From Muribaculaceae bacterium (GTDB taxonomy: Bacteria; Bacteroidota; Bacteroidia; Bacteroidales; Muribaculaceae), in contig JAIEBK010000160.1 in assembly GCA_029070945.1 (NCBI GenBank), positions 8,400 through 51,098 of the forward strand: a stretch of 42,699 nt of DNA, written 5' to 3'. Position 1 is the first letter of the stretch. Every line of letters starts with the position of its first letter. Under the pieces are notes generated by a model. The model was not told the origin of the DNA. It was given only the letters and a program-made list of their open reading frames with translations, and searched no databases. A program made the position numbers and the translations under genes. Below, one piece after another: positions 34,639 to 36,209 of this stretch.

Positions 34639-35877
34639 TCAGATTTTCTTACCGTAACGGGCATATATATCAACTCCCATCTTTTTGGCCTTCTCTACGT
34701 CTTCTTTGTTTGCGGGGTCTACGCCATATTTACTTAGTTGCGGGATAACGACCGGAGTGCCGGGGCGTATCCTGTCCGGATGTCCCAGTTTCGATTTGTT
34801 TTCCTCATAAATATAAGGCCAAAGGTTGAAGTTTCCGTAATGATCCTTCGCCATGGTTGTGAGATAGCGGGTCTTGCCGATAGTGTCGTATACCAGTTCA
34901 TCCGATGGTGCGGTCGGCACTTCGGTGTCTTCATTTATAAAAGCTGAGTCTGCTGTAGTGTCTGCTGCTTCGGCATTGTTAATGAGGCTCGCTTTTTCCG
35001 GTGATTCAGTCATGCTTTCCGCCATATCGTTTTCAGTCAGCTGCATTGTCGTTTCAGCTGCTGTAAGGTGGAGGCGGAATATACGGTTGACGTTGTCTGT
35101 GGCAAATACATACCATATAGTCAGTGTCGCGGCCAGCGCAAATATTGCCGCACCAAGTGATATAGTGGCTATTTTTATCCAGCTCCTCTTTCTTGATGCA
35201 GTCGGGATGAATTCCTGATCATCTTCCGAGTCATCAGTTTCGGCTTCCTGGTTGTCTGAAGAAGTCTCTTCATCGGTGGGATTGACAAATTCCGAGGTTG
35301 TATCGTAAACTTCTCCATGGTTGTCATTCGGTTCCTGAAGCGTTTCATTCCGGGTCTCGTCCGCAGGATCATCAGATTCCTGAGTGTTCTCTGCAAGTGC
35401 CGCTGTCAACGATTCTGTCGGGGTTTCATTTGATATCGGACTGTTTTCTTCAAGGATGTTTCTATCTGAATCTATGTTGCTGTCGAGATGACTGACATCG
35501 GATGGTGTCTGAAGGTCGATCTCGTCTTTTGAGATAAGTTGACTTATGTCGATGTCATCGCTTATCTCTATAGCGGAAAAAGCTTCAAAAGGAGCATTTA
35601 CAGATTCAGCGAATTCTTTTGACGGTAGGAAGACTACTTTTGAATGACCTGATATCTCCATCGGCTGTCCGGTGGTCACGTCTACGCTTTTGCGCGGTTC
35701 AACCCGCGAGAGCCTGAATGTGCCGAGTCCTTTTATTTTAACGCCGTCACCGTTCTCAAGCCTTTCGGTAATGATTGAGAAAAACTCCCGTAGGAAATCT
35801 TCCGAAAACCTCTTTGACCTGCCGGATTTGTCAGCGAGCATGGCTGCAAGCCGGGGAAAAGTAATTTTATCATTCAT
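34639..35877 (-). CDS. HU/IHF-domain protein with acidic linker, single TM helix and C-terminal LysM-like domain
   Basis: N-terminal HU fold (GDGVKIKGLGTFRLSRVEPRKSVDVTTGQPMEISGHSKVVFLPSKEFAESVN); TM IATISLGAAIFALAATLTIWYVFA; C-terminal RYLTTMAKDHYGNFNLWPYIYEENKSKLGHPDRIRPGTPVVIPQL. Confidence 0.85.
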   Translation of the reverse strand: MNDKITFPRLAAMLADKSGRSKRFSEDFLREFFSIITERLENGDGVKIKGLGTFRLSRVEPRKSVDVTTGQPMEISGHSKVVFLPSKEFAESVNAPFEAFSAIEISDDIDISQLISKDEIDLQTPSDVSHLDSNIDSDRNILEENSPISNETPTESLTAALAENTQESDDPADETRNETLQEPNDNHGEVYDTTSEFVNPTDEETSSDNQEAETDDSEDDQEFIPTASRKRSWIKIATISLGAAIFALAATLTIWYVFATDNVNRIFRLHLTAAETTMQLTENDMAESMTESPEKASLINNAEAADTTADSAFINEDTEVPTAPSDELVYDTIGKTRYLTTMAKDHYGNFNLWPYIYEENKSKLGHPDRIRPGTPVVIPQLSKYGVDPANKEDVEKAKKMGVDIYARYGKKI

Positions 35878-36154
35878 GGTGGCGGACTTTCTGTTTTAGC
35901 AATGTTGACGGACGGAATGTCATGGTGATTTTTGGGGGAATCAACATTCGTTTGCCGGTGGAAGGCTGGACGGCTATCCTTTCTATGCGTTTGCGGGGCT
36001 CAAAACTGCCGAACCCGGGAAATGTGACTGAGTCTCCCTCCAACGCAGCATCAGTCAATACCTGGCATAAGGCACTGATCATTTCAGAGGTTTCCTCCTT
36101 TCCGGCATTGACCCTCTGGCTTAAAGTCTCTAAAAATGTCTTGTGGTCCATCAT
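35870..36154 (-). CDS. HU/IHF-family DNA-binding protein
   Basis: GDSVTFPGFGSFEPRKRIERIAVQPSTGKRMLIPPKITMTFRPS. Start set at MMDHKTF because a promoter match predicts a TSS near 36172, downstream of the longer ORF start. Confidence 0.88.
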   Translation of the reverse strand: MMDHKTFLETLSQRVNAGKEETSEMISALCQVLTDAALEGDSVTFPGFGSFEPRKRIERIAVQPSTGKRMLIPPKITMTFRPSTLLKQKVRHHE

Positions 36155-36178: not shown

Positions 36179-36209
36179 CAAAAATAACTAATATTTTCCT
36201 TGTGTCAAA
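36179..36209 (-). promoter_or_regulatory. Bacteroidetes-type promoter for HU operon
   Basis: Minus strand TTTG-N19-TATTTTTG. Confidence 0.55.

What the first reader, a model, noticed from the sequence alone, without database searches (positions are those of the whole stretch)
34639..35877. HU-family DNA-binding domain tethered through a TM helix to a LysM-like domain: candidate chromosome-cell wall linker
Seen: one 412-aa ORF reads, in order, a full HU/IHF fold, a roughly 130-residue acidic Glu/Asp/Ser/Thr linker, a positive KRSWIK patch then one hydrophobic helix, and a LysM-like segment ending RPGTPVVIPQL. Known: HU binds DNA in the cytoplasm; LysM binds peptidoglycan glycans; positive-inside predicts N-in/C-out topology. 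Inference: this could physically connect nucleoid to peptidoglycan, or act as a membrane-anchored DNA organiser or wall-stress sensor. HU proteins are normally small and soluble, so this architecture stands out.
Basis: partly seen in the sequence, partly recalled or inferred. Interest (0 to 1): 0.85.

Follow-up and report, generated by a model that had tools for sequence, protein, structure and literature searches.

The report
Membrane-tethered HU pair with LysM domain
Many gut and environmental Bacteroidota carry a two-gene unit whose products look like the two halves of a DNA-bending HU protein, one half being threaded through the inner membrane to a cell-wall-type (LysM) domain, which makes it a strong but untested candidate for a physical link between chromosome and cell wall.

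Summary
The 412-aa gene lies on the minus strand (34639-35877): HU fold, about 130-residue acidic disordered linker, one transmembrane helix, periplasmic spacer, LysM domain and a helical tail. It is not an assembly artefact: the same single ORF occurs in over 100 distinct sequences, including named Bacteroides and Parabacteroides records, across about 20 Bacteroidales families and one family of another class. A small HU gene (HUc, 35870-36154) overlaps it upstream by 8 nt and accompanies it in essentially every genome. HUc and the tethered HU (HUm) are two ancient, cleanly separated paralogues. They are naturally fused (HUc-HUm-TM-LysM) in several lineages, and where HUm loses its DNA-binding arm HUc usually loses its tip proline. 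The AlphaFold model of a fused form matches engineered single-chain IHF. So the unit is most likely a membrane-anchored heterodimeric HU head with a periplasmic LysM foot. DNA-to-wall tethering remains inference: nothing here shows DNA or peptidoglycan binding. HUm's tip proline is Val in Bacteroidales, and some lineages have lost the arm. Closest known kind (recalled, not read): HU-CCDC81-TM-SPOR proteins of Bacteroidetes. Verdict: a conserved, largely unrecognised new variant of a known kind; function testable.

The parts
34639..35877 (-). HUm-TM-LysM gene, 412 aa (tethered HU subunit)
   Evidence: conserved as one ORF in >100 sequences
35578..35877 (-). HU/IHF domain (residues 1-100); arm tip SVDVTTG, i.e. 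Val where canonical HU has Pro
   Evidence: PF00216 3.7e-19; AlphaFold pLDDT about 94; alignment
35194..35577 (-). acidic disordered cytoplasmic linker (residues 101-228), net charge -36 over residues 101-225
35116..35172 (-). transmembrane helix (residues 236-254), preceded by KRSWIK
   Evidence: hydropathy 2.09; AlphaFold helix 230-277; positive-inside across family
34903..35115 (-). periplasmic spacer (residues 255-325)
   Evidence: pLDDT <50 over most of 282-318
34738..34902 (-). LysM domain (residues 326-380)
   Evidence: PRK11198 1.5e-8; Kbp 7pvc 1.1e-10 with family profile; AlphaFold
34642..34737 (-). conserved C-terminal tail, helix 391-409 (motif KAKxxGxxIYxRY)
35870..36154 (-). HUc, small companion HU/IHF-like gene (94 aa from ATG at 36154; longest ORF from TTG at 36181); tip proline kept (AVQPSTG)
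   Evidence: PF00216 2.2e-20; companion present in 104 of 105 relatives, the exception a contig end
35870..35877 (-). 8-nt overlap of HUc stop and HUm start (ATGAATGA), suggesting translational coupling
   Evidence: overlaps of 4, 8 or 11 nt are the commonest spacings in relatives
36179..36209 (-). Bacteroidales-type promoter-like site TTTG-N19-TATTTTTG, 24 nt upstream of HUc ATG
   Evidence: match to the TTTG/TAnnTTTG consensus is from general knowledge

Best explanation
A two-gene operon makes a heterodimeric HU/IHF-type DNA-binding head. HUc is the soluble subunit with the canonical arm; HUm is the subunit anchored in the inner membrane. A long acidic, flexible linker holds the head away from the membrane, one TM helix crosses it, and a spacer of about 70 residues lets a LysM foot reach peptidoglycan. 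The unit therefore most likely tethers DNA (nucleoid periphery or particular loci) to the envelope, for nucleoid positioning or segregation. SHOWN computationally: the domains, single TM, gene pairing, ancient paralogy, natural fusions, correlated arm/proline loss. INFERRED: heterodimer formation, DNA binding, peptidoglycan binding, tethering role. My confidence: anatomy and topology about 0.95, HUc-HUm heterodimer about 0.85, DNA-to-wall tether about 0.5.
For: HU, TM and LysM in one ORF, conserved across about 60 of 295 sampled Bacteroidales genomes and in family f49 of another class, and in named Bacteroides, Parabacteroides, Phocaeicola and Prevotella records. Companion HUc directly upstream in 104 of 105 sequences, the exception being a contig end. 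HUc and HUm separate perfectly in a tree of 133+133 sequences, support 0.992, with both classes in both clades. Natural HUc-HUm-TM-LysM fusions in families f20, f26 (two genera), f85 and f137. AlphaFold model of one fusion hits engineered single-chain IHF (2iif, 2iie) over both HU domains, E 1.7e-6. Arm loss in HUm goes with loss of HUc tip proline: 6 of 9 against 0 of 124. LysM is extracytoplasmic by positive-inside rule and by the lipoprotein relative. In f49 the tethered HU keeps the canonical NPQTG tip, so DNA binding is the likely ancestral state.
Against: No experiment. In Bacteroidales HUm the tip proline is Val and several arm Arg are lost; nine unfused members and most fusions lack the arm, so the head cannot everywhere wrap DNA as HU does, while TM and LysM stay. 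HUm's mean net charge is about zero. The nearest solved LysM, Kbp, is a potassium-binding protein, so peptidoglycan binding by this LysM is not certain. No ParABS-, division- or SMC-type neighbour was seen to be conserved; apart from the pair itself the flanking genes vary. The arm/proline correlation is not corrected for phylogeny.
Confidence: 0.5

Rival explanations
1. Membrane-bound regulator: the LysM senses peptidoglycan state or turnover in the periplasm and the HU heterodimer changes expression or topology at specific promoters (ToxR/CadC-like logic with an HU head).
For: Single TM with DNA-binding head inside and ligand-type domain outside; a promoter-like site of its own; a Sigma_reg_N match over the TM region exists but only at E 0.22.
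Against: HU-type heads usually have low sequence specificity (general knowledge); no conserved target or neighbour gene; a long disordered linker is a poor signal transducer (inference).
Confidence: 0.2
2. The HU head has become a protein-protein interaction module, as proposed for CCDC81 HU domains, and the unit is an envelope or division scaffold that no longer binds DNA.
For: Arm lost in nine unfused members and most fusions while TM and LysM persist; second HU of fusion L073 resembles HU-CCDC81_bac_2, 24.7 bits, below cut-off; Foldseek of the fused model also matches a chain of the sea-urchin doublet microtubule along its whole length (8snb_1K).
Against: In most pairs (124 of 133) both arms are present and HUc keeps its proline and basic residues; f49 HUm has the canonical tip.
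Confidence: 0.2
3. The two HU genes act in nucleoid packaging near the ribosome/SRP gene cluster and the membrane part only keeps them at sites of co-translational insertion (transertion-type coupling rather than wall tethering).
For: In Bacteroides, Parabacteroides and Prevotella the pair follows rimO, and in the first two ftsY; rimO directly upstream in 22 of 102 pairs.
Against: Synteny is absent in Muribaculaceae and in f49; does not explain the conserved LysM and tail.
Confidence: 0.07
4. Assembly or frameshift artefact joining two genes.
For: Window is a draft assembly, 189 contigs, 82.8% complete.
Against: Same ORF in more than 100 independent assemblies, including isolate records.
Confidence: 0.01

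Closest known systems
HU-CCDC81_bac_1/bac_2-TM-SPOR proteins of Bacteroidetes (Burroughs et al. 2017, recalled; paper not held)
   Same: HU-superfamily domains inside, single TM, peptidoglycan-type domain outside, predicted chromosome-partition role; two HU domains in tandem, as in the natural fusions here
   Different: Window HUm gives no PF18174/PF18175 match; LysM instead of SPOR; HU halves encoded by two overlapping genes; armed HU in most members. The window's genome also holds a separate HU-CCDC81_bac_1+2-TM protein.
HU / IHF (DNABII) nucleoid proteins
   Same: Full HU fold, IHF-like two-subunit design; solved relatives IHF 7.1e-22 and HU 2.7e-14 by profile
   Different: One subunit is membrane-anchored with linker, TM and LysM; tip Pro replaced by Val in Bacteroidales HUm
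E. coli Kbp/YgaU LysM
   Same: Closest LysM by sequence
   Different: Kbp is a soluble BON-LysM potassium-binding protein (general knowledge); here LysM is tethered, periplasmic, with a conserved helical tail
Engineered single-chain IHF (2iie/2iif)
   Same: Two HU-type subunits in one chain; fused homologue L196 has it as its nearest structural match
   Different: Here the fusion is natural, with membrane anchor and LysM; second HU lacks the arm

Membership tests
HU/IHF (DNABII) | HU fold by profile and by structure | tested here: met
   PF00216 3.7e-19 (HUm) and 2.2e-20 (HUc); Foldseek HU/IHF 1.4e-7
HU/IHF (DNABII) | beta-arm with intercalating tip proline | tested here: inconclusive
   HUc keeps Pro; window HUm has an arm but Val at the tip; f49 HUm has NPQTG; nine members lack the HUm arm
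HU/IHF (DNABII) | dimerisation and DNA bending | not testable with these tools
   only indirect: fusions and single-chain IHF match
HU/IHF (DNABII) | small soluble protein | tested here: not met
   HUm is 412 aa with TM; HUc meets it
LysM | beta-alpha-alpha-beta LysM fold and profile | tested here: met
   PRK11198 1.5e-8; Kbp 1.1e-10; model. Pfam PF01476 itself gives no match to the window protein and sub-threshold hits in relatives
LysM | binding of peptidoglycan glycan | not testable with these tools
   no assay possible
HU-CCDC81_bac-TM-SPOR | PF18174 + PF18175 HU domains and SPOR | tested here: not met
   no match at E<=1 in the window protein; a separate protein of the same genome has both HU domains and no SPOR match
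HU-HIG (PF18291) | score above curated cut-off 26.2 bits | tested here: not met
   15.6 bits

The most novel reading that the evidence does not exclude
A dedicated bacterial machine that mechanically links chromosome to peptidoglycan through one membrane-spanning HU heterodimer (a prokaryotic analogue, in layout only, of nucleus-to-envelope linkers), old enough to be shared by two classes of Bacteroidota. In some lineages the pair was fused and lost its arms, and may show how armless tandem HU proteins of the CCDC81 kind arose.
Probability: 0.4. Interest if true: 0.88.

Novelty: new variant of a known kind. Interest (0 to 1): 0.68.

Why it matters
How Bacteroidota, including dominant gut bacteria, position and segregate their chromosome is poorly known. 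This unit offers a concrete candidate whose HU half, linker, TM and LysM can each be deleted separately in tractable commensals. The named records carrying it are annotated only as 'HU family DNA-binding protein', so the membrane and LysM parts are easily overlooked. The natural fusions and paired arm loss also give a rare series from a two-gene HU heterodimer to single-chain armless HU proteins.

Tried and rejected
Literature: nine full-text searches found no paper on this protein; Burroughs 2017 is not held; the LysM proteins named in PMC10434189 and PMC13055991 could not be tied to this family. Assembly/frameshift error rejected. Mobile-element origin: tblastn of plasmid and phage collections gave only partial or HU-only matches, no clear mobile context. 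Conserved gene neighbourhood as functional clue: only the HUc-HUm pair is constant. Ordinary-HU contamination of the survey: the HUm profile leaves a gap in score between long ORFs and ordinary HUs of about 95-140 aa. Count of independent fusion and arm-loss events: Fitch gives about 6 each, but the tree is poorly supported, so I rely only on the cases where an unfused close relative exists (f20, and genus g28 of f26). A true two-chain prediction of HUc+HUm with DNA was not possible with these tools.

Full report
CHECK OF THE OBSERVATION. The ORF is real but on the minus strand: 34639-35877, 412 aa from ATG at 35877. Residues 9-94 match PF00216 at 3.7e-19. Residues 315-380 match the YgaU/Kbp model PRK11198 at 1.5e-8, although Pfam's own LysM model gives no match to this protein. 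One hydrophobic segment lies at 236-254. AlphaFold with 46 homologues gives a confident HU fold (7-97), a disordered stretch (about 115-225), a TM helix (230-277), a LysM beta-alpha-alpha-beta unit (329-378) and a helical tail (391-409). Foldseek returns HU and IHF as best PDB matches for the model. With a profile of the LysM region the best PDB match is Kbp, 1.1e-10.

A SECOND GENE BELONGS TO IT. Directly upstream, overlapping by 8 nt (HUc ends CATGAATGA, HUm starts inside it), is a small HU/IHF-like gene, HUc, 35870-36154, PF00216 2.2e-20. A Bacteroidales-type promoter-like site (TTTG-N19-TATTTTTG) lies 24 nt upstream of its ATG, so the two genes look like one transcription unit. The gene upstream of it, a pyrophosphate-dependent phosphofructokinase-like ORF (named by eye), is divergent.

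CONSERVATION. The same HU-acidic linker-TM-LysM order was found as a single ORF in nearly every relative with enough sequence to tell. Of 105 distinct unfused sequences scored with the HUm profile, LysM was missing only in one cut by the end of its locus and one masked by N. Further exceptions elsewhere are one homologue whose LysM is divergent enough to escape the profile (L200) and one member split by a frame break (L194). By my count about 60 of 295 sampled Bacteroidales genomes carry it (about 20 families). In the phylum sample the HUm profile also finds it in family f49 of another class, in 49 of 147 genomes of that class, all of f49. Named records: Parabacteroides distasonis, Bacteroides finegoldii, Phocaeicola massiliensis, Prevotella oral taxon 299, Dysgonomonas. 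Those with annotation are called 'HU family DNA-binding protein' only.

HUc IS THE LIKELY DIMER PARTNER. (i) 104 of 105 sequences have HUc directly upstream on the same strand; the exception is a contig end. Flanking genes otherwise vary. (ii) In a tree of 133 HUm and 133 HUc sequences the two types separate without a single exception, support 0.992, and both Bacteroidales and f49 occur on both sides: the pair is old. (iii) In families f20, f85, f137 and f26 the two are fused in operon order into one protein, HUc-HUm-linker-TM-LysM; for f20 and for genus g28 of f26 close relatives are unfused, so fusion arose more than once. (iv) The AlphaFold model of one fusion has engineered single-chain IHF as its top PDB match, aligned over both HU domains (TM-score on the target only about 0.46, so the domain arrangement is approximate). 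(v) In 124 of 124 pairs with an arm on HUm, HUc keeps its tip proline; in 6 of 9 pairs where HUm has lost the arm, HUc has lost the proline too (Fisher p 1.2e-8, not corrected for relatedness).

TOPOLOGY. K/R residues are more numerous before than after the TM in 47 of 49 homologues. A related lipoprotein with signal peptide and lipobox (L060, L061) carries the same LysM and tail, so this LysM type works outside the cytoplasm. The spacer between TM and LysM (about 70 residues) has a contour length near 25 nm, enough to reach peptidoglycan (inference).

MECHANISM. The most economical reading is a membrane-anchored HU heterodimer whose LysM foot engages the wall: a DNA-envelope tether. Domain order, pairing and topology are computed results; heterodimerisation is strongly suggested; DNA binding, wall binding and tethering are inference. 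Caution comes from HUm itself: in Bacteroidales the intercalating proline is Val (SV[DN]VxTG) while f49 keeps NPQTG, and arms are gone in some lineages. So DNA binding may rest mainly on HUc, and may have been given up in places. Rivals are a wall-sensing regulator and a CCDC81-like non-DNA scaffold.

RELATION TO KNOWN KINDS. From memory, Burroughs and co-workers (2017) described HU-CCDC81 proteins with TM and SPOR in Bacteroidetes and proposed a role in chromosome partition; I could not read the paper. The window protein does not match those HU models. Its genome has a separate HU-CCDC81_bac_1+2-TM protein without a SPOR match. The LysM system here is therefore a distinct, two-gene variant of the same general idea, and its fused, arm-less forms resemble the tandem CCDC81 layout (one search gives a weak PF18175 hit to the second HU of one fusion). 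Whether that paper already lists the LysM form I cannot say.

VERDICT. Observation confirmed, interpretation partly supported and extended. New variant of a known kind; high interest because it is old, conserved, hidden behind a bland annotation, and directly testable.

Noticed in passing
L060:3212-4276 and L061:839-1900: Lipoprotein (lipobox LLASC) ending in the same LysM plus KAKKLAKEIYARY tail as the HU protein, without HU; no Pfam match for L061. Suggests a second envelope protein sharing this foot.
   Followed up: partly
G000:C53, L197:3460-4215 (+): The window's genome encodes a HU-CCDC81_bac_1+bac_2 protein with one TM and a short periplasmic part without a SPOR match.
   Followed up: partly
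model of L196: Foldseek matches the tandem HU part to a whole chain of a sea-urchin sperm doublet microtubule (8snb_1K) and, with poor superposition for some chains, to chains of the Mycoplasma mobile gliding G1-ATPase (9io5).
   Followed up: no
L064, L094, L102, L111, L112, L186-L188, L203: HUm lacking the whole beta-arm while TM and LysM stay; in the first five the HUc tip HP is changed to DL.
   Followed up: partly
L221, L222, L223 upstream: ftsY-rimO-HUc-HUm gene order in Parabacteroides and Bacteroides, rimO-HUc-HUm in Prevotella; not seen in Muribaculaceae or f49.
   Followed up: partly
L194: In G637 the HUm and TM-LysM parts lie in two overlapping ORFs, a frame break or sequencing error.
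   Followed up: no
window:32946-34322 (-): 458-aa ORF that looks like a tryptophanase/tyrosine phenol-lyase (named by eye), found near the HU pair in many Muribaculaceae but in varying orientation.
   Followed up: partly
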